A stretch of DNA of 38,097 bases from Candidatus Altimarinota bacterium (lineage in GTDB: Bacteria > Patescibacteriota > Gracilibacteria > BD1-5 > UBA6164): NCBI GenBank assembly GCA_013350285.1, contig JAAXWG010000002.1, forward strand, positions 262,513 to 300,609. The letters are read 5' to 3'. The translations under genes and the position numbers were made by a program. The notes below the pieces were generated by a model. The model made no database searches. It saw only the letters and a program-made list of their open reading frames with translations, and had not been told where the DNA came from. Position 1 is the first letter of the stretch, and each line of letters opens with the position of its first letter. This document shows, in pieces, positions 4,544 to 35,534 of this stretch.

Positions 4544-4642
4544 ATATAATATATTATTAATTATTGATAATATTTTTGACATATTTAAAATTATGTTTTA
4601 TAATATATCTATATCTTCAAAATATATTATAAAATTATTATT

Positions 4643-5281
4643 ATGGATGAAGGAAAAACACAAACAAAAATAAGTATAAGTAGTCTAAAAGCTGATTTTG
4701 ATAAAGATAAAATTTCAACTTCTCCTTCTTCTTTAAAGGATGAAAAGTCTAAAATTGAAGAGAAGAAAATAAATATTATTGAAGAAGAAAAAACAAAAGA
4801 GGATATTTCCCTCTCTTGAGAAGAAATAAACTGAACTTGAGAAATATTGAAAGAAGAAAATAGTGATGAACTCTTTACAAATTATACTCCTATTTTTGAA
4901 AAAAGAAGAATAAGTTTTCTTGAAAGACTAGAAGCTCTAAAAAAGAAAGCAAAAACAAATTATAAATTTATACTTATTATTATTTTTGTTTGATGAATAA
5001 TAACCTGATCAATCATTTATTTAGATCCACAACATCAGTCTTTCCCAAATTATAAAGCAAATGTACTTAATATTGTAAGTAAAATAAAATGAGATAAAAA
5101 TATCAATACTTCAAGTATAGAAAATAAAGAACAAATAAATATAAGTGGTCTTTCTCTTTCATGAACTATTAAAGCAGATGAAGAAAATAACTCTATCTTA
5201 ACAACTGAAAAAGAGCAAATAAAAATTGAAAGAGAGAAGGTTTGAAGAGAAAAAATTAAAGAATATTTCAAAAATCATTAA
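4643..5281 (+). CDS. Single-pass membrane protein of unknown function in the pilus block (212 aa)
   Basis: I do not recognise the family. Residues 1-85 are charged and Lys/Glu/Asp-rich with no signal peptide. One transmembrane segment lies at about 112-135 (KFILIIIFVGGIITGSIIY). The remaining 75 residues are polar and rich in Asn, Ser and Glu. Topology is probably N-in, with a short outer domain. Its position between prepilins and pilB, and its own downstream terminator, suggest a pilus accessory role comparable in place (not visibly in sequence) to PilN/PilO-like assembly proteins. That is inference only. Three in-frame TGA codons fall within or next to the membrane helix. Confidence 0.72.
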
Positions 5282-5440: not shown

Positions 5441-6670
5441 ATGGAACAGGATAAAAATGTGATTATACAGTCTATGCAAATAAAAAAAGATGTCTGAGAT
5501 ATTGTAGAATATGTCAATTGGATTTTTAAGTCTGCTATAGAACAAAGAGCATCAGATATCCATATAGAACCTACTGAATTTTTTCTTATGGTTCGTTTTC
5601 GTCAAGATGGTGATTTTCTCATTATTGATAAACTAGATAGAGAAAATATATCAAGCATTGTTACAAGATTAAAAGTACTTGCAAAAATAAAAATAGATGA
5701 AAATAAAAAACCTCAAGATGGAAAAATAACTTATTATTATGAAGTAGAAAATAAAAATATAGATATAAGGCTTTCTACCCTTCCAACAAGTTATTGAGAA
5801 AAGGTGGTAATGAGAATTTTGAAACCAGATGCAACTCTTACTAATATCACAAAACTTGGGCTTATTGATGTAAACTTGGAAAAAGTAAGAGAGGCTCTCA
5901 AAAGTAAATATGGTATTATGCTTGTTGCTTGACCAACAGGATCTTGAAAATCAACAACTCTTTTTTGAATACTTAAAAATTTTAATCCTCTTGATTACAA
6001 TATATCAACCCTTGAAGATCCAATAGAGTATGCAATAGAATATGTAAACCAATCTCAAGTAAAACCAGATATTTGATATACCTTTGCAACAGGACTGAGA
6101 AGTCTCGTAAGGCAAGACCCTGATATTATAATGGTTTGAGAAATAAGAGATAAAGAAACGGCAACTCTTGCGGTAGAAGCAGCACTTACCTGACATCTTG
6201 TACTTTCTACTATCCATACAAATAGTGCAACTGGAACTGTACAAAGGCTTATCAATATGGGAGTAGAACCTTTCTTGCTTTCTAGTGCGATGAAGATGGT
6301 AATCAGTCAAAGGCTTGCAAAAAGAATGTGTCCTTTTTGTAAAAAAGAAAAAGTACTAAGTGAACAAGTAAGAAAAAAAGTAGAAGGATTTTTGAAACCT
6401 ATTATGGAAGAAGAAGAATTAAAAAACCTCGTTTTTTATGAAGGAGCTTGATGTGAGAAATGTAATAATTCATGATATAAGTGAAGAATGTGAATTCATG
6501 AAGTTCTCATAGTAGGAGATTATCTCGAATCTATGATACTTGAAAGAAGAAGTGCAAATGAAATGGCTGAAAAAGCTATAGAACATTGAATGATAACTAT
6601 TGTTCAAGATGGTCTTATAAAAGCAGCTCTCTGAGAAACAACCGTTGAAGAAGCACTTAAACTTATATAA
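5441..6670 (+). CDS. pilB: Type IV pilus assembly ATPase PilB (GspE/VirB11 family), 409 aa
   Basis: Cytoplasmic hexameric motor that powers pilus extension. Walker [10 protein letters not shown] is at residues 164-172, with its first and third glycines encoded by TGA. The Asp box follows (EDPIEY), then Walker B IIMVGEIRD (about 229-237) and the His box [12 protein letters not shown]. The C-terminal zinc knuckle typical of PilB/GspE rather than PilT is present: CPFC at 297-300 and C338-x2-C341. The protein begins right at the ASDIHIEP domain (residues 33-40), so the N-terminal MshEN/N1 domain of usual PilB proteins (about 560 aa) is missing. A TATAAA box lies at 5407-5412. A phosphatase and pilC follow in the same direction. 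Confidence 0.96.
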
Positions 6671-6691: not shown

Positions 6692-9600
6692 ATGTTATTT
6701 AAGAAAAAAGAAAAAATAATTCCCAAAAAAGATATTACCATTAATAAAGAAATAATTAATGAGTCTATTATAAAAGATAATAATAGTAAAAAAGTAAAAA
6801 AGAAAGAAGAATCTAAAGTTCCCCTTCAAGAAAAAATAAAAAAAGAAGATATATTAATAGAAAAAATGGAAAATATAAACTCATTAGATAATCATAAAGT
6901 TTTACTAGAAACAAAAAATGAAACTAATAATAAAATTATAGAAGAAATAGAAAAAAATGTTGAAAATAAAAATGATAAAGACATAAAAAAATTAAAAAAG
7001 AAAAAAGAACTTGATACAAAAAAAGTAAAAGACTTTCATGATGTAGTAAAAGCTATTAATATATATATTTCTGAAAAAGATTGGGAAAAAGCTTATAAGG
7101 CAATAGAGGAAATAAGAAAAAAAGAAAAAAAGTCTCTTAATATACTAATAAATGGAATAGAAAATAATAACAAAAAATTAGATCTGAAAAAAAGATTTGA
7201 AAAAAATACTCTTATTATAAATAAACTTGAAGAAAAAATAAAAAAAGAAGAAAAAAAATACAATACTAAAATATCTTGAGAAAATTTTATATTAAAAATA
7301 AAAAATATAATTCCTTTTTTTTCAAAGATTCATAAACAGCAAGACTCTACTAGTCTTACATCAAAAATTCCATCAAATTATAATAAAGATAATTACAATA
7401 ATATTGTTACAAATAATGAAGCACCATTACAACAAAATAATATTGTTATAAATAATGAAAATATCATAAAAGTTGAGAAAAATGAGCAGGAACTTATTCT
7501 TCCAATTTCTGAATTAAAACCAATAAATGATATTAATAATGAATGAATAGAAGAAATTAAAAAAGAAGAATTGAAAGATAATACTCAAGATTCTTTAATT
7601 AATAAAGAGTTATTATTGAAAGAAGAAGAGAAGAAACAAGTTGAAATAATAAAAGAAGGTGTGATATGAAAAATATCAATTAGTCAAATGAAAAAAAATG
7701 ATGAAATACAAGAAAAAAATGAAACAGAAGAACAAAATAAAATAATAGAAGAACAAAAAATAGAAGATGAAAAAATAGAAGAAGAAAGAAAAAATGTTCT
7801 CATGGAAGAAAAAGAAGAAAATGATAAAATTTGAAATGATAAAAATAAAAAAAATTTAAAAAAGAAAAAAGAGCTTGATACAAAAAAAGTAAAAGACTTC
7901 CATGATGCAATAAATGCTATTGATATATATATTTTTACAGAAGATTGGGAAAAGGCTCATAAAGCAATAGATGAAATAAGACAAAAAGAAGAAGAGGCTC
8001 TTAATATATTTGTAAGAGCAATAGAAGATTCTAATAAAAAAAGAGAGGAAAAAAGGAGATTTGAAAAAAATGCTTTTATTATAAGTAAGCTTGAAGTAAA
8101 ACTTAAAGAAAAAGAACAAAAGTATAATGATAAAATATCTTGAGAAAGGTTTAAGCTTAAATTTAAAAAAATAAAAGAAGAAATTACACTTCTTTCAAAA
8201 ACTCATAGAAATCAAGAAGCTCTCAATCTCCTTTCAAATTTTCTTGAGGACAACAAGGATAAATATGTTGTTATACAATTTTACAACAAAGAAAAAAGAT
8301 CTATTCAAAGAGCAATAGAAAAAGATAGGATAAGAGAAGAAGTAAATGCGAAAAAAAATACTAAAAACGAAGCATTGAAACTTATTTGACAAACGATGAA
8401 TTTGGAAGAATGACAAGAACAAATAGAAGGTGGAGAAAATAAAGAATGACAAGAAAATAAATTCAAAAAAATATTTAATTTTTATAAAATAATACTTGAG
8501 AAAAAAAGAAAAAGAAAGCTTATAGATGAAGTAACTTCCCTTATAGAATCTCAAAATCAAGCAGAAATGGATATAGCAAAAAGTAAGCTTGAAAAAGTTC
8601 ACCAAGGTCTTATAAAAGAGCTTATGGTAAATAATATCAGAGGATATGAATTTTTTTGAAAAATACTTGGAGCAGATAAAATATCATGAGATACTTTTTG
8701 ATTTTTGGATGATAAAACAAAATATAATTTCTTTCTTTGAGATGCAACAGGACATTGAGTAAAGGCAGGACTTATTGTATCACTCCTTAATAGATTATTT
8801 AATAAATATTCTGTATGAAATCCTTTAAGAAAAATTGTATTTAATATTAATAATTGACTTAAACAAGATCTACAAAGTAGAAATTTTATAACTTGAATAT
8901 TTTTTGAAATAGAGAAAGAACATCCTCAAATAATACAATATGTTGGTATGGGACATGAGCCTATGTTTATATATAAGTCAAAAGAAAAAAGGGTTGAAAA
9001 ACTTATTCCATGAGGACTTGCATCTTGAATTAGAATAATTAAAGAAGAAGATGATGTTAGGATAAAAGATATTGAATTGGAAAATGAAGATATGCTTATT
9101 TGTTTTAGTGATGGTATTGTAGAAGCAAGAAATATGAGCTCTGAGCTTTATTGATTTGAAAAACTTGAAATATGTATACAAAAAAATTGAGAAGGATCAA
9201 ATATTACAAAACTTTATAATGCTATTATTGATGATGTAAAGTCTTTTAAATGATGAGCTAAATTTGAGGATGATGCAACTGTTATTATTTTAAAAAGAAA
9301 TGAATTAAAGGATATTATACAAGAAAAAGATAATTATCTTCAAGAAGTTGCTTCAAGGGAATGACTTTCTAATAAGACTGTTAAAAAAATGATATGAAAA
9401 ACAAAAGAACAACTTGAAGCAGAAATTGAAAAAATAAAAAAAGAAAAACAATTGTTAAATATCATAAAAGTACTTGAATGATATTATTATACCTGAGAAA
9501 TACTTATGCTCAAACAAGAAGCAATAAGATTTATCAAAGAATGATTCATTCATCCTAAAATAAATAAATATCTCAAACTTGCAATAGCAAATGAGACAAA

Positions 9601-9733
9601 ATATAAAGTAGAACAAAAAAATAAGAAAATAGAAAGTAAATATAATGTATTGAAAGAACTTATGAAAAAATGAGATTATATGACCGTTATAAAAGAATGT
9701 AATGAGATTATAGCAAAAGATGGAAATATATAA
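6692..9733 (+). CDS. Coiled-coil protein with C-terminal SpoIIE-type PP2C phosphatase domain (1013 aa)
   Basis: A 645-residue Lys/Glu/Asn-rich, largely coiled-coil region precedes a PPM/SpoIIE-type Ser/Thr phosphatase domain at about 645-867. The domain keeps the full metal-binding set: SGDTF (about 665), GDATGHGVKAG, GMGHEP, CFSDGIVEA and EDDATV (about 860). A module of about 95 residues starting DTKKVKDFHD occurs twice, near residues 108-200 and 396-490. It carries DWEKA-KAI-EIR, which resembles a TPR-like helical hairpin. A third helical region closes the protein (about 900-1013). Several glycines of the active-site loops are TGA. SpoIIE phosphatases usually dephosphorylate anti-sigma antagonists or partner proteins; no STAS substrate is seen here. 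The gene sits 21 bases after pilB and 25 before pilC, so control of pilus assembly is a reasonable guess. The start is the first ATG after pilB. Confidence 0.88.
7013..7291 (+). repeat. Intragenic duplicated module, copy 1
   Basis: Encodes about 93 residues from DTKKVKDFHDVVKAI to KISGENF. It matches copy 2 at 7877-8155 over its whole length with many substitutions, which points to an old duplication within the phosphatase gene. Confidence 0.8.
7877..8155 (+). repeat. Intragenic duplicated module, copy 2
   Basis: Encodes DTKKVKDFHDAINAI to KISGERF. The shared anchors are DWEKA, KAI-EIR-KE, RFEKN and ISGE; TGA encodes Gly in the last motif of both copies. Confidence 0.8.
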
Positions 9734-9758: not shown

Positions 9759-10976
9759 ATGCTTACTTGAGCTTTTTACGACAAATACTGAAACTTTGAT
9801 AATACAAAATTTCTCAAACTTCTTGAGGAAGCAAGAAAGATGCAAATAAAATCCCAATTAAAAAGTTGAGGATCCTCTTTTGGAAAAGAAATTTCTCTCT
9901 TTAATAAGGTTTCTAAAAAAGAACTTCGGCAATTTATAAATAAACTTTCTATCTTCATTAATTCTTGAATTGATATTAAATGAGCCTTAAGTATCCTTGT
10001 AAAACAGGTTAAAAACCCTTTTATGAAAAAGATAGCAACAGAAATAAAAAATAATATTGATCATGGTATAGGAATAAATGAAACAATGAGACAATATCCA
10101 AAAGTATTTGATGGATTAACTGTTTCTCTTATAGATGTAGGAGAAAAAACTTGAAAACTTGGAAAAATACTTGCAGAACTTGATGATAATCTTTTAGAAA
10201 GTATAGAATTAAAAGGAAAAGTAAAGTGAGCAATGATTTACCCTGTAATTCTTCTTAGTCTTACCCTCCTCATGGTAGTTGGTATGATGACATTTATTGT
10301 TCCAAAAGTAACAGAATCATTTAAAAAAACAGGAACAGCTCTCCCATGACCAACTCAAATTATTGTAAATATATCAGATTTTTTTATTGCAAAATGGTAT
10401 GTTATTATTATTTCTATCTTTATAACTATTATTTCTGTTAAAATTATTTGAAAAACTTATATAGGAAAAATTTCTTTTGCTAAATTATTTGTTAATATGC
10501 CTATATTTTGATATGTTGTAAAACAATCAAATATCGTTTATTTCATCAAATCTTTTACCATACTTCTTGATTCCTGAGTTCTTTTACTTGATTCTCTAAA
10601 AACTGCAAGTACTGTAGTACCAAATATGCTTTATAAAAAAGAGCTTGTAAGAATAAAAAATGAAGTGGAAGTGTGACTAACTATATCAAAATCCCTTGGT
10701 CTTAATCTTGATTATGAAGAATGAGTATATCTCAATAAGCTTTTTTCAGAAGAATTTGCTTATGTTATAAGTACTTGAGAAGAAACATGAACACTCTCAG
10801 ATTCTCTTAAAAAAATAGGAGGAAATTACAATGGAGAACTAAAAAGGTATATTGGAAATATGTCGAGTATGATGGAGCCTATTATCATTGTTATTGTTGG
10901 TGTACTTGTTGGTAGTATTATCATTGCAGTTATGCTTCCTTTCTTTGAAATGGGAAGTATTGCAAAGAAAATGTAA
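9759..10976 (+). CDS. pilC: Type IV pilus inner-membrane platform protein PilC (405 aa)
   Basis: Polytopic GspF/PilC protein with two copies of the T2SSF domain (about residues 60-185 and 260-390). The first has the family pattern LSIFINSGIDIKGALSIL, then GEKTGKLGKIL. The second has LLDSGVLLLDSLKTAS, then STGEETGTLSDSL. Hydrophobic helices lie near residues 155-185, 205-235 and 365-395 (EPIIIVIVGVLVGSIIIAVM), as expected. The length matches usual PilC (about 400 aa). It anchors the PilB/PilT motors and the assembling pilin. It closes the pilB-phosphatase-pilC run and is followed by a strong terminator. Many glycines are TGA. Confidence 0.95.
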
Positions 10977-11880: not shown

Positions 11881-14800
11881 TTACTGTATAATAAATCCAT
11901 CTGAAACAGCTGTAGGAGAAGATATGCTTTCATTATAACTTTGTACTCTCCATTCATAAGTAGTATTGTTGTTCAAACTAAAATTCCTATTTGCTTTTAT
12001 ACAACTTGCATCTGTTACATCAGCAGATACAATACAAGCAGATGTTTGGCTTCCTATATCAATTCTATCAAAAACTATAGATTTATGTGTTTTATTATAA
12101 AGCTGTACAAAATAACCCATTGTTTCAGGAACGGATGAAAAACTTAATCAAACTTTTTTAACTTCTGATTGAGAATCAATATCAGATCCATAATTTACAC
12201 CATCTCTTACCATTGATGGTGGATTAATTCTTGAACTTGCTATTTGGTATACATATCCATCTTCTGCTGAAACTATTATATCTAATAATTTATCATCATT
12301 TGTGTCTCAAAAAATCATTCTTTTTATAGCAGAACCAATATTATAAGCCTTTATTATATTTCAATTTAATCAAATAATATATATATATCCATCTCCTCAT
12401 CAAACAAGTACCTGAATACTTCCATCTTGAATAAAGTCTCCTAAAAGAACATCTGCTGTAGGAAGAGGTATTAAATTATTATTTAAAATTTCTTGAGCAT
12501 TTGCATATTTTCTAGCATTTAAATAATAATTATTAAAATTATTTGTTATATTTGTTCCATTCCAAGATTTAAGAGAAACCTGTCAATCAAGTCATCTAAA
12601 AGCAACATATGTTTTGTTATTAAATCTATGAAATGAAGGAATTCATCAACTTATTCAAAAAGTAGAAATTACATCTCATGGAATATTTACAAGACTTGAA
12701 AGCTGAATTTTATTTGAAGAATTTACTTTCATAACTCCTGCATTATTTGTTCCTCTTATAACCTCTTTTTTTCAATCTCCATCAAAATCAAAAGCTACAA
12801 GAGCTATTTCTTCACTATATGGTGACATCTGATTTCATTCAGTAACAACTCATCAACTTATTGATAATACTCTTGTTGCTCTTGCATCAGTTCAAGGAAT
12901 AAGCTCATCAATACCATCTCCATCAAAATCTTCAGAAACATTAGAATGACTATTTCATCCGTCACAATATCCATTTCAATTTCACCGATCTAAGTCAGGA
13001 ACTATCTGACTTCCATCTACTCAACTTCTTATTGTATAAAAAAGATGATTAGGCCATGTAGCTGTAGAAGTACAATATGACCGAGCTATATCAAATACTC
13101 AATCTCAATTCAAATCTCAAACCCATCATGTAGAATTGTATTTCAAGCTATAACTTCAAGGAGCATTAAATGTATAGGCTTTTCATCATATAAATACCTC
13201 ATTATATCAATCTAAATCCATATCATAAGAAAAAAAGAAATCATTATTTAGCTTAATAGGAGGAGATCAAGGATAAGAACTTCTCGCATCAAACATTCCT
13301 ATTCAGCTTATCATCAATTTATTATACCTAGATTCTCATAATCATAATTTAGATATAACCAAATCTTTTACTTCCCCTCAAGAATAAAAATTATCTGATG
13401 TTATTTTTGTAAAATTATAATTTCCTAAAGATGCTTTCGTTCTATAATAATTAATAGTATTTGTTGTTAGATTATAAGATAGAGCATACATATCATTATT
13501 ATCTTCTGTCAATCCCCATTTTATACAAGAAGGAACTCAACTTGTTGGTCAAAACTGTTTTACAAAAGTTACTCCTGTATCCTCTACTTCATAAAATTTA
13601 AAGTACCCTCCATCCGAAACTACAAATTCTTTCTTTCCATTTCCATTTGTATCATAGGATGCAAGAAACACTCAAGCATTTTTATTTCTTTCTCTTCTTA
13701 TATCATATCCTCCATCAAATAAAGTATTTCCAAAAAAAGAACCTCTCACTTTTAATGAACTTGATGTCAAAAAAGTATTTATTCCATTAAAAGTATAAAA
13801 ATAATACTCTCATCATTTGAGTAATACAACATAATCTTTTATTCCATTGCTATAAATTCCTGCCAGTGTATAACTTGTATCAAAAGCATTATATGCTAGT
13901 TCATAATTAAAAGATTCATTTTCAGTAGATGTTTTTTTATATCAAGAATCTAAAGATCATTTATATTTTAAGAGAAGCCATTTATTAACTAAATCAACAG
14001 GATCTCTTCCATAAGAAAGTATATAAGAATCTTCAGGATTTGTCTGATTTCTAAGAGCTATAGGAATAGAAAAATTTCCATAAGAAGTAAGTCAAGAGGC
14101 TCCTACAACTCTTGGATTTGATAAAGACATATATTGAACCATTACTCAAGAAGTATTGAGTCAAGCAACTCATAAACGAGAAAGTTTATTATTATTTAAT
14201 TCTTCATCAATTCTATAAATATACTCATCATTTCAATCATTATTAATATCATAAAAATACCCTATTCAACTATTCCGTCAATTTCAACTATTTCCTCAAA
14301 CAAATATTTTTCAGAAAGCAGGCATTTTGTATTTGAGGTTTCATGAAAGACTCGGATTTACATCATTAGAATAAAAAGCAAAGGTATGTGATCATTTTGT
14401 TCAAATAACTAATTTTGAAGCTATATTTCCCATAGCCCATTGTTGTGGTTGATATCCATCACTTCATTCATTATAATCTCCATATCATTGAGAAGACCAA
14501 AGTGTTTCCCCTATTACCTTTCCTGATGAGTTAAAGAAACGAAAAGAATTATATTTATTATACCATTGTTTAAAATGATATTCATTTATACCATCTCCAT
14601 TTACATCAAAAACTTTATAATCTATTGTTGGCCATCAAGGTTTTACTGTCTTTACTGGTCAAGATGCAGAATTTGAAATCCGCTCTAAATCTCCATTTGC
14701 TCAATTGATAACTCCAATATACCAATCATTTCATAAAGCAACTATAATTGATTTTACACCATTTCACAAAATATTTTCTATTCACAAAATAGCCCTAATA

Positions 14801-16071
14801 TCTAAAACTTTTGTTTCCCAAATATTTCCTCAAGTAATAGTATCTCATAAATATATTTTTCCCCCATATCAATATATAATATTTTCATTTCCATCTCCAT
14901 TAACATCAAATCCTCCATAATATATCAATGGTGATTTATTTGTAGTAAAAAGTCTCCATTTTACTCAAATAGACTTATTAAGTGCTCCTGACATTCCCAT
15001 ACTATTTCTATGATGATCAGCGGTTCAAACTCACTGTCATCTTGATCATACATCTCAAAAGGGCCACTGTCATACATAATTTGTTTCTCCATTTGGAAGT
15101 AATGCTCAAGTATCAACATCTCAAAAAATAATATCAGAAACTTCATCCCCTCAATCACATTCAATTTCAAGTATGTTTACTACTTTTTTTGTAAGAGCAC
15201 AAGAATATTTTATAAAATCAAGTGTAGGATTATATATATCTGCATATACAAGGGAAAAATCAATATAATCCTCTTGTCATTCTAAGGTTGATTGATTATA
15301 TCTATCACTTAACTTTTTATAAAAACCAAGTCTTGTATCTTGATTTTTTAAATCTTGAAAATTTCAAATAAAAAGTTCATTATCTTCATCTGTAAATACA
15401 GCAAGTCATTCATAAAAATCAAAAACTTTTGATAAATTTGAATTATTTATATTATAAGAACTTGGTAAATTTTGATATCAATTATATGCTAATTTTTTAT
15501 TTCCTATTATATCAAAAAAATCTGTTTCTGATGCATCTGAAGTTATTATACTTGGACTACTTAATATATAATCTTTCCCTCAAGTAGATGTTAATAATGC
15601 TTTTGCATTATAAGTTCCTACAATAGCGGTTCTTAATCAATTTGTTCAAAAGCTTGCATTTAAAAATGAAAAACCTCAATTTTCTACTGCAAAACCTATC
15701 TGATATTCCAATAAATTTGTTAGTACTGAATAAGTATATTCATTTTTTGTAAGAGGATCAAGAGGAACCTCATTTATTCTTCATGCTATTGCTCTTGTTT
15801 GTTCTCAAAAGGTTCATTCTTTCCATATAGTTGCTCAAGTAAATATTATATCTCTAGGATTTGTTGGGAGAGGAAAAAATGATTTTTCTGTTTTAAAAAG
15901 TTCTAAATTTTTTTTTATATTATTTATATCAGAAGTTCTTACTGAATCTCTCGCATTTTTACCATATCATTGAATACTTGTAAAAGCTATAGCTCAAAGA
16001 ATAGTTAAAATAACTATGGTAACTATAAGCTCTACCAAAGTAAATCAAATTTTATCTTTAGAACTTTTCAT
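11881..16071 (-). CDS. Giant prepilin fused to FG-GAP/VCBS-like repeats and a C-terminal Fn3-like domain (1396 aa)
   Basis: Residues 9-32 are a classical prepilin signal: IG|FTLVELIVTIVIL, with the cleavage Gly (codon at 16047-16045) encoded by TGA and Glu at +5. After a pilin-like part (to about residue 280), a long region carries repeated Asp/Gly calcium-type motifs such as FDVNGDGN, DVNGDGINEY, DINNDGNDE and DFDGDGIDE. These are characteristic of FG-GAP/VCBS beta-propeller repeats (integrin-alpha-like adhesins). The last 95 residues (TYEWRVQSYN) resemble a fibronectin type III fold. I checked the frame line by line: it has no TAA or TAG before 11881. ATG 16071 is preceded by AAGGGG at a short distance, the only convincing Shine-Dalgarno in the window. 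Likely a pilus-displayed adhesin; ligand unknown. Confidence 0.87.
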
Positions 16072-28753: not shown

Positions 28754-29953
28754 ATGAAGTATTTAGTTAATATAACAAATCTCCTTGTTGTTATAATTCT
28801 TCTCCTCAATGTTGTATTTATTTATTTTTGATGAGACTCTATTCTTGGAAGTCAAGGAATAGAAAAATATTCTATTCCAAGTCTTATTTTTATCATAGAA
28901 GCTCTTCTTATAATTTCTATAATAAAAATAGTGTATGAAAAACCTATCATTGATTTAGAATATACTATTAAAAAATTTCTTTATGGAAAAATAAAAGCAT
29001 GACCTATAGAAATAGAAAAGTCTGTAAATCCTCATCTTAATTATATTATCTTATTTTTTACAAATACTCTCACAACTCTCAAAAATATAAAGGATGAGTT
29101 TATTCACGGAAAAGAAATAAAATCAGAAGTAGAACTCGGAAAAGAAATTCAGTCAAAACTCCTTGAGAAAAAACTAGGCTCTATCCCTTCTCTCAATGTT
29201 GTTGCAAAATCAAAACCAGCATGAGAAATAGGATGAGATAGTTATGATGTGATTCAAGAGTGAGATAACTATTATGTGTATGTATGAGATGCAACAGGGC
29301 ATTGAGTTGGAGCTTGATTTATTATGATGATGGTAAATGCTCTTATCTCTTGATTTTCAAAAATCTATGAATCATGAGCAAAAATTCTTGCTGAAACAAA
29401 TGAGGTTTTGAAACCAAGAGTAAAAGCAAATCTTTTGATGACTATGCTTCTTATTAGATGGAATGAAAAAGAAAAAAGACTTTTTATGACAGGAGCTGGG
29501 CATGAAAATCTTATCGTATACAAGCATAAACTCAATAAATGCTTTAAAATAAAATCTTGATGAGTTGCACTTGGTATGATAAAGGATATTTCTAAACTAC
29601 TCAAAGAGCAAGAAATAAAATTTGAAATAAATGATATTCTTGTACTTTATAGTGATGGAATAACAGAAGCTATTAATCAGGGGAAAAAAGATGGAAATGA
29701 ACAAAGGTTTTGAGAAGAAAGACTTGTATCAGCAATACAAAATGCTCCAAATATATATGGGAAAGATTATAAAAGTACTTCTAATGTATTTAACAATATT
29801 AGTATAGAACTTTCAAAATTTATGGGATACAACCATATTCAAATGGATGACATCACTCTTGTCGTGGCTCATTATAGAGGAGAAGAATATAATATAAATG
29901 AGGATAAAGAAACTCCTCTTGCTGAGGATTTTATTACAGAATGGAAATGGTAA
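28754..29953 (+). CDS. Membrane-bound SpoIIE-type PP2C phosphatase (399 aa)
   Basis: Two transmembrane helices (about residues 8-27 and 42-64) are followed by a linker and the RsbU/SpoIIE-type phosphatase domain (about 130-385). Conserved elements: GKEIQSKLL (the typical linker helix of RsbU-like enzymes), GEIGGDSYDV, GDATGHGVGAG, TGAGHENL, YSDGITEA and MDDITLVV, so the metal-binding aspartates are intact. These enzymes dephosphorylate Ser/Thr residues, often on STAS-domain antagonists; no such partner is in the window. The VirB4-like ATPase follows in the same direction after 116 bases. It is a second phosphatase of the same family as the one in the pilus operon. TGA encodes several active-site glycines. 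Confidence 0.92.
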
Positions 29954-30069
29954 AATTTTAAACATAAATTTTTTAATTTTTCTAGTCCAATTAAAGCAAA
30001 AATTTGAAATAAATGTTTTGTAAAATATAATGTTGTGCAAGACATTTATTTTTTATACAAAATCTCCCT

Positions 30070-31929
30070 GTGGAAAAACAAGAAAAACTGCTCGCACTTA
30101 TAAAAAAAAGGTATAATTGAGATATTTTTTGATATAATTGAGACTTATATCAAGAAGGAACAGAAAAAAAACAAGAAGAAACTTTTTCAAAACAAGATGA
30201 AAAAATAATACTTGAAGTAGAAAAAGATTACAAAGAAGCTCTTGCTTATATAAAAGATATTATTTCTCCTGCTTTTTTAAAAGTATTTCCTGATAAAATC
30301 AGAATTAATAATACTTTTGTAAAGACTTATTTTGTCTATTCTTATCCGACTTTTTTGGAATGAAATTGGCTATCACCTGTTATTAATTGGGATGTAAAAT
30401 TTGATGTAAGTCTCTATATTTACCCTATTGATTCAGCTTACATACAAAAATATTTAAGAAAAAGACTTACTCAACTCTATTCTGAAAGAAGTATAAATGC
30501 AGAAAAATGACTTATTCATGACCCAGCAGTTGATGCACAAATACAAGATGTAGAAGAACTCAGAGAAAAACTTACAAGAGGAATGGAAAAATATTTTCAT
30601 TTTTGAATTTATATCACTCTTTATGCAGAAGATGAAGAAAAACTCAATAAAATAGGAAAAGATATAGAAACTATTTTGGCTGGAAGAAATGTCCTTCAAA
30701 AACAAAGTTATTTGAGAGCAGAACAAGGATTTATCTCTACGGGACCTTTTGCAAAAGACGAACTTGGAGTCTATAGAAATATATCTACTTGATGACTTTC
30801 TACTACTTTTCCTTTTAGTTCATCTACTCTAAGTCATGACGAAGGAATTCTTTACGGAATAAATACTCACAATAATTCATTAATAATTTTTGATAGATTT
30901 AAAATGGAAAATGCAAATATGTGTGTATTTGCAAAATCATGATCTTGAAAATCTTTTACTGTAAAACTAGAAATTTTAAGAAGTCTTATGCTTGGAACTG
31001 ATGTAATCATTGTTGATCCAGAAAATGAGTATAAGCCTCTTGTTGATACTGTTGGAGGAAGTTATCTTAATGTCAGTCTTAATGCAAAAGAAAGAATCAA
31101 TCCTTTTGATCTTCCTCTTTGACTCAAAGACCAAGAAACAAGATCTTGAGATTTACTCAGAAATGCTGTTATAAATCTTCTTGGGCTTATGAATCTTATG
31201 CTTTGAAAACTCAATTCAGAAGAGGAGTCTATAATGGAAAAAGCTCTTATCACAACCTATAGTCTCAAATGAATTACCTTAGAAGATGATAGTGCTATTG
31301 GAAAAGAAATTCCTATTATGAAAGATTTACAAGATGTTCTTGAAACAATGGAATGAGGAAAAGGACTTGTAAGAAGAATGGAAAAGTATACAACTTGAAT
31401 TTTTTCTTGAATATTTAGCCAAAGAACAAATATTGATCTCCAAGATTGACTTCAAGTTTTTTCTGTAAGAGACCTTGATGAAATTTTGAGACCTATTGCA
31501 ATGTTTGTTATTCTTAATCATATATGGAATAAAGTAAGAAGCTCTACTAAAAAAAGGCTCCTTGTCATAGATGAAGCATGGAATATTATGCAATATGATG
31601 ATACTGCAAAATTTCTGTTTTGACTTGTAAAAAGAGCAAGAAAATATAATTTAGGAATAACAACTATTACTCAGGATGTAGAAGATTTTGTAAAAAGTTC
31701 TTATGGAAAACCTATTGTAACAAACTCATCTATTCAGCTTCTTCTTAAACAATCTAGTGCTTCTATAGATATATTACAAGATGTTTTTAAGCTTACTGAA
31801 CAAGAAAAGTATATTCTTCTTAATTCTTGAGTTGGACAGGGATTATTTTTTGCTGGAACTGAGCATGTATGAATCCAAATTGTAGCAAGTTTTTATGAAG
31901 AAAAAGTCGTCTCAACAAGTTTTAAATAA
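30070..31929 (+). CDS. VirB4/TraC-like ATPase (619 aa from GTG)
   Basis: Conjugation/type IV secretion-type ATPase. Walker A SGSGKSFT is at about residues 290-297, with both loop glycines as TGA. It is followed by VIIVDPENEYKPLV, which is characteristic of VirB4/TraC, then Walker B LLVIDEAWNIM (about 497-507) and the TTITQDVEDF helix. An N-terminal domain of about 270 residues precedes the motor (ISTGGLSTTFPFSS, GINTHNNS). The frame is open from 30031, but no ATG lies upstream of the conserved part. GTG 30070 is the only canonical start and gives VEKQEKLLALIKK; TTA or ATA starts a little upstream cannot be excluded. No other secretion genes are adjacent. Confidence 0.85.
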
Positions 31930-32700: not shown

Positions 32701-33075
32701 ATGAAAAAAAAAGTACTAATTATTGAAGACAATATAGATTTATTAGAAATTTATAAAATTAATTTTGAGATGGAAGGATTTGTAGTTGATACAGCAAAAA
32801 ATGGAATGGAATGAATTGTAAAACTTTTAGAAAAAAAACCAGATATTATTGTCTTGGATATTATGATGCCAAGTATGAATGGGTTTGAGGTATTAAAAAC
32901 AATAAAAACTCAATCATCAATAAGTATACCAATAGTTGTGTGTAGCAATCTTTCTTCAAAGGAAGATGAAACCACAATAATGGAATCCGGAGCAGATATT
33001 TATTTAAGAAAGTCAGACTATAAATGAGAAGAAGTTGTAAAAAAAGCAATAGAATTATTAAAACAAAAAATATAA
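32701..33075 (+). CDS. Receiver-only response regulator (124 aa)
   Basis: A single CheY-like domain: acidic pair IIEDN (residues 7-11), phospho-acceptor Asp53 in IIVLDIMMPSMNGFEV, the VVCSNLSS switch region and a C-terminal Lys in YLRKSDY. There is no output domain. It ends three bases from the end of the histidine kinase gene on the opposite strand, so kinase and regulator are convergent neighbours and probable partners. Such stand-alone receivers often act by protein-protein contact, as in motility control. Confidence 0.93.
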
Positions 33076-33078
33076 AAC

Positions 33079-34404
33079 TTACCCTTGTTTTATAGGGAGA
33101 ATAAAGGAAAATGTACTTCCCTTTCAATAGCTACTTTTTATAAATATTTTTCCGCCCATTCACTCTATTATATTTTTACATATAAAAAGTCCTAATCCTG
33201 TTCCTTTTTCTGTTTTATTAAGATGTGATCAAATTTGAGAAAATTTTTTAAATAATTTATTTATATCTTTTCTTCTTATTCCAATTCAAGTATCCTCAAT
33301 TGATACTTGAAAATTTCTTTTATCGGACATTTCTTCTAATTTTATAATTATTTTTCAATCAAAATTTGTGAATTTATAAGCATTAGAAATAAGGTTTATA
33401 AGTACTTGTTTCAATTTTTCTTCATCAACCATAGCAGTAATATCTCATAGATTGTGCTCAATTATTATATTTTTTTCACTTAACAAGTTTGTAAATTCTT
33501 CAATTGTCTTTACAATTAATTCTCTTATATTTGTTGATGTAAATTCATAATCCATTTTTCAAGATTCAATTTTATTAATATCAAGAGTGTCATTAACAAG
33601 CTCTATTAAAGTATCTGTATTTGATAAAACTCTTTCTCAATATTTTTTTTGGGTTTCATTTATTGGTCCAAATTTTCCTTTTAAAAATAAGTTTACATAT
33701 TCTTTAATAACTGTCATAGGAGTTCTTAGCTCATGGGAAGTTACGGAAATAAATTCATTTTTCATATTTTCTAATTCTCTCTCTTTTGTAGCATCTCTAA
33801 AAACAATAATACAAGATCTTTTTCAAGATGAAAAATTTTCAAGTGGTGTAGAAATAAGAGAAATAGGAATATTTTTGTTTTTTCAAATGAGAAGAATATT
33901 TTTATTAAAAAAATATTCTTTTCCTTCTTTTAATGTATCTAGAATAAAATTTCATATTTTTATTTTTTCATTATCTGAAACAAAATTGATATATTCATTG
34001 TAATTTTTTCATTTTAGAAATTCTTTTGAATATCCTGTTAATAAAGATGCTTTACTATTAATTATAACAATAGTATTGTTTGAATCTACAACAATGAGCC
34101 CCTCTCAAAGATTATCTATGATAGAAGCAAGATTATCTTTACTTTCTTGCAATTTTTCATTTATCTCAATATTTTTATTGAGTATATTTGAAAGTTGTTC
34201 ATTTTTTGTAGTAAGTTCACTTGAACTTACTTCTAGAGTTTTTTCTACCAAAGAAAGCCTTTCATTTTCATAAGTATATTCTTCATCTATGGCATTTAAA
34301 AAAGGATTTAATTTTTCATACTCCTCTTTTTCCAAAAAATTCAAATATTTACTTATTTGTTTTTTTAAAAGCTTTGATTTAACACTATTTTGCCAAGAAT
34401 ACAT
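33079..34404 (-). CDS. PAS-containing sensor histidine kinase (441 aa)
   Basis: No transmembrane helix is seen. Residues 45-95 form a coiled coil (SSSELTTKNEQLSN). A PAS domain follows at about 95-205 (GLIVVDSNNTIVIINSKASLLTGYS). The HisKA dimerisation domain has the H box TSHELRTPMTV with His at about residue 224. The HATPase domain has N box NLISNAYKFT, G1 EDTGIGI and G2 GTGLGLFICKNI, all intact. It starts five bases after the stop of the FIST gene, so the two are co-transcribed and the kinase is presumably the cytoplasmic output of FIST sensing. TGA fills several Gly positions. Confidence 0.93.
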
Positions 34405-34409
34405 AAAAT

Positions 34410-35534
34410 TTAATCTTCTGATATTAAAATTGTTGTCATAGTCTGATTATGAAGAAAATAATCAGAATCTATACTAATATTTTTTCAAATTTCCCCATAA
34501 GAATAAAATCAAGCTATTTTACAATCTTTTCAAACAACACTTATAACTTCTTCTATTTCTTCTTCAATCCTTTGCCTTAAAACCATTCTTCTTGAAATAC
34601 AGTTTACTAAAAGAGCAATTTGAGGATGAGGATTTAATTTATAAGATTCTCTTGTTGAACTCCCTGCTCATTTTATTATATCATCATAACTTGCTTTCAT
34701 AAAATATGCACTATATCATTCTGGTACATCAGATGAAAATACTACACTTTTATCTTCTTTATTTATTCTTAATAATGTCCTTACAACTGCTTCATCTTCA
34801 TTTTTATCAAAAATACTTATTGGTATAGGATAGAATAATCAAGATTTATCTCACAAGTAATCCTTATAAAGTTCTAAAGCTGGTTCTCAATCAACTTCAT
34901 AAACTATATTTCATTTTGATTTTGTAATAGTCCTTTTTATACCAAATTTTGTCCATCAAGAAACAGAACAAGATCATATTTTTATAGAATCACCATAAAG
35001 TCAAATCATTACTATATTATTTTTTTCTACAGAAAAAGAATTAAGTCAAGCATATGTGTTAATAACATCTGGATTATCTCAAGCAAGTCATCATGTAACT
35101 CAAATATTTCTGGGTAATATTTCTTTCATTCATTTAATTAATTCCGATCCATTTACTCATAATCCATCTGAAAATACTAAAATATGTTTTAAGTCATTAC
35201 TCAATAATTCTTTTGCTAATTTTGAAGCTACTTCAATACTATTTTCTATATTATTTACCTCTCAAGATACTAATTTAATAGGAGTTTTATCAAAAGTCAT
35301 AGCAGTAATAGATATAGATTTATCAAAAATACTATTTCCTAATATTTCTCAATAAGTTGAAATATAAACTATATCTGATTGCGGATAGAATGATTTTAAC
35401 AAACTATGAACATCTATATTATTTGAATCTCTTAAAAAATCAGGTGCAATAAAAACAAGAACTAGTTGAGCAGAAGTATTTATTTCCTCTGATGACCATT
35501 TTTCAGAAATATATTGTCTTTGTTCTATTTTCAT
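34410..35534 (-). CDS. FIST-domain sensory protein (374 aa)
   Basis: FIST N domain at about residues 20-210 (AQLVLVFIAPDFL; ELLSNDLKHILVFSDGLWVNGSELI; ILPRNIGVTGGLAGDN) and FIST C at about 215-365 (VSGWTKFGIKRTITKSKGN; VYEVDGEPALELYKDYLG; GYFSYGEI-like end). FIST is a known ligand-binding sensory module of signal transduction proteins, proposed to bind small molecules such as amino acids. Here it stands alone and is encoded just before a cytoplasmic kinase, i.e. as a split sensor. Two FIST hallmarks, GLAGDN and FYSYGEIG, use TGA for Gly. Confidence 0.9.

What the first reader, a model, noticed from the sequence alone, without database searches (positions are those of the whole stretch)
6692..9733. 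SpoIIE-type phosphatase embedded in the pilus assembly operon
Between pilB and pilC, a place normally held by pilus genes only, lies a 1013-residue protein with duplicated TPR-like modules and an intact SpoIIE-type phosphatase. This suggests direct Ser/Thr phospho-control of pilus extension, perhaps by docking to PilB/PilC through the coiled coil. I know of no described pilus system with this arrangement.
Basis: partly seen in the sequence, partly recalled or inferred. Interest (0 to 1): 0.8.

Follow-up and report, generated by a model that had tools for sequence, protein, structure and literature searches.

The report
Phosphatase wired into pilus operon
In an order of tiny, mostly uncultured bacteria (Gracilibacteria, BD1-5) a Ser/Thr phosphatase gene always sits between the two core motor genes of one type IV pilus system; together with a matching kinase and switch protein elsewhere in the genome it probably forms an on/off switch linked to that pilus, an arrangement I found in no other lineage and in no paper searched.

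Summary
With genetic code 25, window 6692-9733 encodes a 1013-aa protein with an intact SpoIIE-type PP2C domain (Pfam 3e-33) between pilB and pilC. It is fixed: in all 53 loci readable on both sides of the gene, pilB and pilC flank it; the rest end at contig edges. Metal-binding Asp are invariant (54/54). Genomes lacking the phosphatase also lack this PilB ortholog, and paralogous pilB2-pilC2 pairs have no phosphatase. The gene order was not found outside the order.

The 'direct phospho-control of PilB/PilC' reading is weaker. The genome has no Hanks-type kinase match, but one SpoIIAA-like STAS protein with the phospho-acceptor Ser, and one RsbW/SpoIIAB-like kinase, which in this family usually lies behind a second pilus operon. 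Only one sigma-70 factor was found. The phosphatase's nearest relatives are encoded with STAS and kinase genes. Best reading: the phosphatase arm of an Rsb-type partner switch, not aimed at an alternative sigma factor, tied to one pilus machine (analogue: cyanobacterial HmpU-V-W). Substrate, output and direction of signalling are inferred. New variant of a known kind; interest about 0.6.

The parts
5441..6670 (+). pilB1, T4P extension ATPase, 409 aa (code 25)
   Evidence: Pfam T2SSE 5e-122; ortholog (55-78% id) present only where the phosphatase is
6692..9733 (+). SpoIIE-type (PPM/PP2C) phosphatase gene 'phos1', 1013 aa (code 25)
   Evidence: ortholog between pilB and pilC in all 53 loci with both sides readable
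6971..7396 (+). first copy of the N-terminal helical module (aa 94-235), lineage-specific extra copy
   Evidence: 60% identical to copy 2; absent from most orthologs, which start at the second copy
7835..8266 (+). second copy of the helical module (aa 382-525), the one shared by orthologs
   Evidence: helices in AF2 model
8690..8692 (+). catalytic D667 (KISGDTFG motif)
   Evidence: 54/54 D
8714..9298 (+). SpoIIE/PP2C domain (aa 675-869, Pfam limits)
   Evidence: Pfam PF07228 3e-33; best folds SpoIIE 5ucg and Rv1364c RsbU domain 3ke6
8741..8758 (+). D684 and following loop (D-A-T-G-H-G)
   Evidence: D684 54/54
9110..9115 (+). D807-G808 (SDG)
   Evidence: 54/54
9269..9274 (+). D860-D861 (DD)
   Evidence: 54/54
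9332..9730 (+). conserved C-terminal helical domain (aa 881-1013), not part of Pfam SpoIIE
   Evidence: conserved columns, helices with good pLDDT
9759..10976 (+). pilC1, T4P inner-membrane platform protein, 405 aa (code 25)
   Evidence: Pfam T2SSF 1e-47; downstream of phos1 in every readable locus
4643..5281 (+). protein with one hydrophobic segment, upstream of pilB1; perfect sigma-70-like promoter at 4576-4604 ahead of it
   Evidence: weak homologues upstream of pilB in some relatives
28754..29953 (+). second SpoIIE phosphatase 'phos2', membrane-anchored, next to virB4; possible second phosphatase acting on the same STAS protein
   Evidence: Pfam SpoIIE 4e-33; phos2-virB4 pair conserved in the order; homologues in other orders of the class follow a STAS gene

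Best explanation
phos1 is the phosphatase (RsbU/SpoIIE-like) arm of an Rsb-type partner switch attached to one type IV pilus machine (PilB1/PilC1). An RsbW/SpoIIAB-like kinase (G000:C5:114410-114937) phosphorylates Ser60 of a small SpoIIAA-like STAS protein (G000:C2:81377-81721); phos1, held at the PilB1/PilC1 machine through its helical N- and C-terminal domains, dephosphorylates it. The state of the STAS protein then turns a pilus function on or off, not through a dedicated alternative sigma factor. Shown here: fixed gene order, intact catalytic residues, presence of kinase and STAS genes with catalytic and acceptor residues, shared presence with PilB1. Inferred: that this STAS protein is the substrate, that phos1 sits on the machine, and that pilus activity is the output.
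For: pilB1-phos1-pilC1 in 53 of 53 loci readable on both sides, over two families and about 26 genera. Presence is shared with PilB1: 16 genomes without phos1 have only PilB paralogs at 52% identity or less, and their pilB2-pilC2 pairs have no insert; the window's own genome also has a pilB2-pilC2 pair without insert. Catalytic Asp invariant 54/54; fold matches SpoIIE, RsbU domain of Rv1364c, SiaA. STAS protein resembles SpoIIAA (E 3.5e-12) with Ser60 aligned to Ser58, 'NSKSIG' invariant in the nine aligned. Kinase: HATPase_c_2 over cut-off, weak match to SpoIIAB (E 0.002), N-box and G-box residues invariant. Kinase profile in 67/77 and STAS profile in 76/77 genomes; family f2 lacks phosphatases and kinase and has only remote STAS proteins. 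Kinase gene follows the minor-pilin gene pilX and HU in 11 of 15 same-family loci. phos1 is sister to phosphatases of kinase-STAS-phosphatase cassettes (94/89), one of which is divergent from a PilB/GspE-like gene. One sigma-70 region 2 match and no Hanks kinase match in the genome.
Against: Kinase and STAS genes are unlinked to phos1. The same STAS/kinase pair is present in genomes that lack phos1 but have phos2, so phos2 may be its main phosphatase. The kinase-pilin neighbourhood is limited to one family; elsewhere only the HU-kinase pair is kept. The STAS phospho-site has Asn instead of Asp before the Ser. No interaction or enzymatic data.
Confidence: 0.55

Rival explanations
1. Information runs the other way: PilB1/PilC1 control phos1, so the pilus motor or surface contact is the input signal and the STAS switch reports pilus state to the rest of the cell.
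For: phos1 has helical flanking domains but no recognised sensor domain; SpoIIE-type enzymes are normally the input element of partner switches and are switched by dimerising linkers (PMC12143880, PMC5468089); phos1 is absent together with PilB1 while STAS and kinase stay, which fits an exchangeable input better than an output regulator.
Against: No output target identified; only one sigma-70 match in the genome, so a transcriptional readout would have to act otherwise. The kinase behind a pilus operon in one family fits output as well.
Confidence: 0.2
2. Direct phospho-control: phos1 dephosphorylates PilB1, PilC1 or a pilin.
For: Strict gene linkage to PilB1/PilC1. A PP2C phosphatase acting within a secretion machine is known (PppA, T6SS; fold hit 6jkv; its function is from general knowledge).
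Against: No Hanks-type kinase match in this genome and few in the order. The SpoIIE-subfamily enzymes studied in PMC11418112 act on STAS-domain proteins, and such a protein is present.
Confidence: 0.13
3. phos1 joins a partner switch that controls the primary sigma factor (as proposed for the Chlamydia Rsb network and sigma66), and its place in the pil operon only couples expression.
For: Only one sigma-70 match in the genome; Chlamydia precedent (PMC4552016, abstract).
Against: Does not explain why gene order is strict, why phos1 is absent only together with PilB1, or why the extra helical domains are conserved.
Confidence: 0.07

Closest known systems
HmpU-HmpV-HmpW partner switch, Nostoc punctiforme (PMC6495340 and PMC8256260, citing Riley et al. 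2018)
   Same: Phosphatase, STAS protein and RsbW-like kinase; acts in development of T4P-motile hormogonia; STAS protein proposed as the output by a mechanism other than the canonical sigma factor one
   Different: hmp genes are their own locus, not inserted between pilB and pilC; different phylum; phosphatase architecture not compared here
BtrU-BtrV-BtrW, Bordetella type III secretion (PMC7498569)
   Same: SpoIIE phosphatase of a partner switch encoded with a secretion locus and required for secretion
   Different: btr genes form a separate locus that includes an ECF sigma factor; not between core motor genes
SiaA-SiaB-SiaC, Pseudomonas aeruginosa (PMC7647112, PMC8457831)
   Same: PP2C phosphatase, kinase and STAS-like SiaC with an output that is not a sigma factor; biofilm formation; SiaA is a fold hit (6k4e) and SiaC a weak Pfam hit of the STAS protein
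   Different: output is the diguanylate cyclase SiaD; no pilus linkage
B. subtilis SpoIIE-SpoIIAA-SpoIIAB and RsbU-RsbV-RsbW
   Same: closest solved folds or sequences for the phosphatase domain, STAS protein and kinase
   Different: control sigma F or sigma B; the window's genome shows a single sigma-70 match
pilB2-pilC2 pairs of the same order
   Same: PilB and PilC families, adjacent genes
   Different: no phosphatase between them

Membership tests
SpoIIE/RsbU-type PPM (PP2C) phosphatase | Pfam SpoIIE domain over cut-off | tested here: met
   115.8 bits vs cut-off 25
SpoIIE/RsbU-type PPM (PP2C) phosphatase | metal-coordinating Asp residues | tested here: met
   D667, D684, D807, D860/D861 invariant in 54 sequences; SpoIIE D628, D746, D795 per PMC5468089. 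Ala follows D684 where SpoIIE has G629, a backbone-carbonyl ligand
SpoIIE/RsbU-type PPM (PP2C) phosphatase | fold | tested here: met
   AF2 model, Foldseek top hits SpoIIE 5ucg E 3e-13 and RsbU domain 3ke6
SpoIIE/RsbU-type PPM (PP2C) phosphatase | dephosphorylates a STAS-domain protein | not testable with these tools
   candidate substrate present
Rsb-type partner-switching module | STAS protein with phospho-acceptor Ser | tested here: met
   SpoIIAA match E 3.5e-12, Ser60 aligned with Ser58
Rsb-type partner-switching module | RsbW/SpoIIAB-like kinase with intact N and G boxes | tested here: met
   HATPase_c_2 46.9 bits vs 27.4; invariant motif residues; SpoIIAB match E 0.002
Rsb-type partner-switching module | genes for phosphatase, STAS protein and kinase linked (usual, not obligatory) | tested here: not met
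   three separate loci in this genome; linked in other cassettes of some relatives and, for STAS plus phosphatase, in other orders of the class
Rsb-type partner-switching module | kinase switches partner between STAS protein and target | not testable with these tools
   target unknown
sigma-factor-controlling Rsb system | alternative sigma factor as target | tested here: not met
   one Sigma70_r2 match in the genome; sigma-54 was not searched
HmpUVW-like pilus partner switch | three genes in one hmp-type locus; mutant phenotype in T4P motility | tested here: not met
   genes are in separate loci; phenotype not testable. Works-like claim only
TPR protein | Pfam TPR match | tested here: not met
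   no TPR family up to E 0.1; helical hairpins in model
type IV pilus assembly locus | PilB (T2SSE) and PilC (T2SSF) homologues | tested here: met

The most novel reading that the evidence does not exclude
phos1 is an integral regulatory subunit of the PilB1-PilC1 motor that reads the motor's state and feeds it into a STAS/kinase switch (or the reverse), so that a type IV pilus of a presumably host-dependent bacterium is coupled directly to a Ser-phosphorylation switch without an alternative sigma factor.
Probability: 0.3. Interest if true: 0.78.

Novelty: new variant of a known kind. Interest (0 to 1): 0.6.

Why it matters
Type IV pili are reported as essential for host attachment in a related Saccharibacterium (cited in PMC11452946), and how such reduced, host-dependent bacteria control them is little known. 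A phosphatase fixed between pilB and pilC in most of an order, with its probable kinase and switch protein conserved as single genes, gives a small and testable candidate circuit. It also adds a case in which Rsb-type switching has moved away from alternative sigma factors to a surface machine.

Tried and rejected
Table 11 reading: rejected, frame broken by 28 TGA. Chance insertion or local oddity: rejected by 53/53 synteny. Decayed enzyme: rejected by invariant Asp. TPR membership: no Pfam support. Hanks-type kinase as the opposing enzyme: no match in the genome. A second STAS hit (C5:99743-100045) is the C-terminal part of a SulP-type transporter, so not an Rsb-type antagonist. pilB-phosphatase-pilC outside the order: none in 380 phylum genomes, and in the scan of 84,980 species genomes the matches to the whole protein were Gracilibacteria/Patescibacteria-type records with the same gene order. 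Literature for a SpoIIE phosphatase in a pilB/pilC locus: no paper holding the terms; two Gracilibacteria papers do not mention phosphatase or SpoIIE in the main text; most subscription papers are not held. Complex prediction of phos1 with PilB/PilC or STAS was not available.

Full report
Observation. The window uses genetic code 25 (TGA=Gly); under table 11 the gene is cut by 28 TGA codons. Under code 25 the ORF 6692-9733 encodes 1013 aa. It lies 21 bp after pilB (5441-6670) and 25 bp before pilC (9759-10976), all on the + strand. Pfam gives SpoIIE at aa 675-869 with E 3e-33, T2SSE for PilB and T2SSF for PilC. No terminator-like site was found on the + strand between pilB and pilC, and a perfect sigma-70-like promoter lies at 4576-4604 (a consensus match only). 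There is no Pfam TPR match.

Conservation. A search with the protein found matches in 73 of 77 genomes of the order, counting all SpoIIE paralogs. Using profiles for the three families, 60 loci with phos1 were examined: 53 have pilB immediately upstream and pilC immediately downstream on the same strand (median spacing between open frames 3 and 6 bp), and the other 7 miss a neighbour only where the contig ends. In a further genome (G062) pilB1 is followed by the start of a homologous phosphatase N-terminus before the contig ends. The metal-binding Asp (D667, D684, D807, D860/D861) are identical in 54 of 54 homologues.

A natural control. Sixteen genomes of the order without phos1 were searched for PilB: their best hits are paralogs at 52% identity or less (PilB1 orthologs are at 55-78%), and where pilC is readable next to them it follows directly with no phosphatase. 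The window's own genome carries four PilB-type ATPases; one paralog is followed directly by its pilC. So the phosphatase belongs to one of several pilus systems, and is present or absent with it.

Range. In 380 genomes of the phylum the profile found, outside the order, essentially only isolated PP2C matches. In other orders of the same class these are about 380-aa membrane-anchored phosphatases, many directly preceded by a STAS gene whose phospho-site mostly reads INS-E-G-I-G, and about 526-aa proteins; a named record of this kind is Peregrinibacteria (L154). In the scan of 84,980 species genomes the records matched over most of the protein were Gracilibacteria/Patescibacteria-type MAGs, all with the pilB-phosphatase-pilC order where readable. 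The record titles place the order in the Gracilibacteria (BD1-5) group; its exact taxonomy name was not shown.

Structure. AF2 with 36 homologues gave mean pLDDT 81 for aa 385-1013: N-terminal helical hairpins, a disordered stretch, two linker helices, the PP2C domain and a conserved C-terminal helical domain. Foldseek's best hits are SpoIIE, the RsbU domain of Rv1364c, RsbX, RssB and SiaA. The pTM of 0.51 means that domain arrangement is uncertain. Known SpoIIE-type enzymes are switched by dimerising helical linkers in front of the PP2C domain (PMC12143880, PMC5468089), which fits the anatomy but was not tested.

The rest of the circuit. The genome has no Hanks-type kinase match. It has one HATPase_c_2 (RsbW/SpoIIAB-like) gene and one free-standing STAS gene; a further STAS hit is part of a SulP-type transporter. 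Order-specific profiles find the kinase in 67 of 77 genomes and STAS proteins in 76 of 77. The two genomes of family f2 lack both phosphatases and the kinase and have only remote STAS proteins, although they retain PilB paralogs; this is one genus, hence one event. The STAS profile matches SpoIIAA (E 3.5e-12) with Ser60 at the position of the phosphorylated Ser58. The kinase has invariant N-box and G-box residues and matches SpoIIAB weakly (E 0.002). In this genome the kinase gene is the last gene after PilN/PilO-like, PilC2, minor pilin and HU genes (the PilN/PilO names rest on position and size only); of 30 kinase loci, 27 have HU next to the kinase, and 11 of 15 loci of the same family also show the minor-pilin-like gene pilX. 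Only one Sigma70_r2 match is present. In a tree of PP2C domains phos1 is a clade (100/100) whose sister (94/89) is the phosphatase of three complete kinase-STAS-phosphatase cassettes in the same order, one of which is divergent from a long PilB/GspE-like ATPase gene.

Mechanism. The parts fit a partner switch: the kinase phosphorylates STAS Ser60, phos1 removes the phosphate, and the state of the STAS protein sets an output that is not a dedicated alternative sigma factor. The strict linkage to PilB1/PilC1 says that the switch serves that machine or is served by it. Sequence cannot tell these directions apart. phos1 being absent with PilB1 while STAS, kinase and phos2 remain fits 'input' slightly better; the kinase's place behind pilin genes fits either. 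Direct dephosphorylation of PilB or PilC remains possible but has no matching kinase.

Comparison. Partner switches acting on surface machines are known: HmpU-V-W in hormogonium development and T4P motility (PMC6495340, PMC8256260), BtrU-V-W in Bordetella type III secretion (PMC7498569), SiaA-B-C in Pseudomonas biofilm formation (PMC7647112). What differs here is the insertion of the phosphatase between the two core motor genes, its helical flanking domains without a recognised sensor, and its fixation in an order of presumably host-dependent bacteria. I found no paper describing this, with the limit that subscription papers are largely absent from the library. I rate it a new variant of a known kind.

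Limits. All function is inferred from sequence; no complex modelling was possible; counts depend on draft genomes, some incomplete; the kinase-pilin neighbourhood was read in 30 loci only; nine aligned STAS proteins, not all 76, were checked for the Ser; kinases other than the Hanks and RsbW types, and sigma-54, were not searched.

Noticed in passing
window 28754-31929 (+): A second, membrane-anchored SpoIIE phosphatase (phos2) lies directly upstream of a VirB4-like ATPase gene and divergent from ftsA-ftsZ. The phos2-virB4 pair is kept in relatives across the order, also in genomes without phos1, so a phosphatase is tied to the type IV secretion ATPase as well. A 2025 survey of Patescibacteria T4SS does not mention a phosphatase in its main text.
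   Followed up: partly
L080:2030-7940 (G000:C5): PilN/PilO-like, PilC2, minor pilins, HU and then the RsbW-like kinase in one run of genes; the HU-kinase pair is conserved in 27 of 30 loci.
   Followed up: partly
L098:4034-10249 (G019): Complete kinase-STAS-phosphatase cassette divergent from a 912-aa PilB/GspE-like ATPase with a long N-terminal extension.
   Followed up: partly
L185:2156-6618 and L196:2248-6615: In two gammaproteobacterial MAGs three PilT-like ATPase genes are followed by a SpoIIE phosphatase gene, an apparently independent pilus-phosphatase neighbourhood.
   Followed up: no
window 32701-35534: CheY-like receiver gene, PAS-histidine kinase and a FIST-domain sensor gene next to each other; possibly a sensory cluster.
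   Followed up: no
window 11881-16071 (-): 1396-aa protein with a pilin-like N-terminus and FG-GAP-like repeats; pilin-like proteins of very different size in one neighbourhood.
   Followed up: no
L066:2006-3891 (G072): phos1 is split into two overlapping frames in this draft genome, either a frameshift or an assembly error.
   Followed up: no
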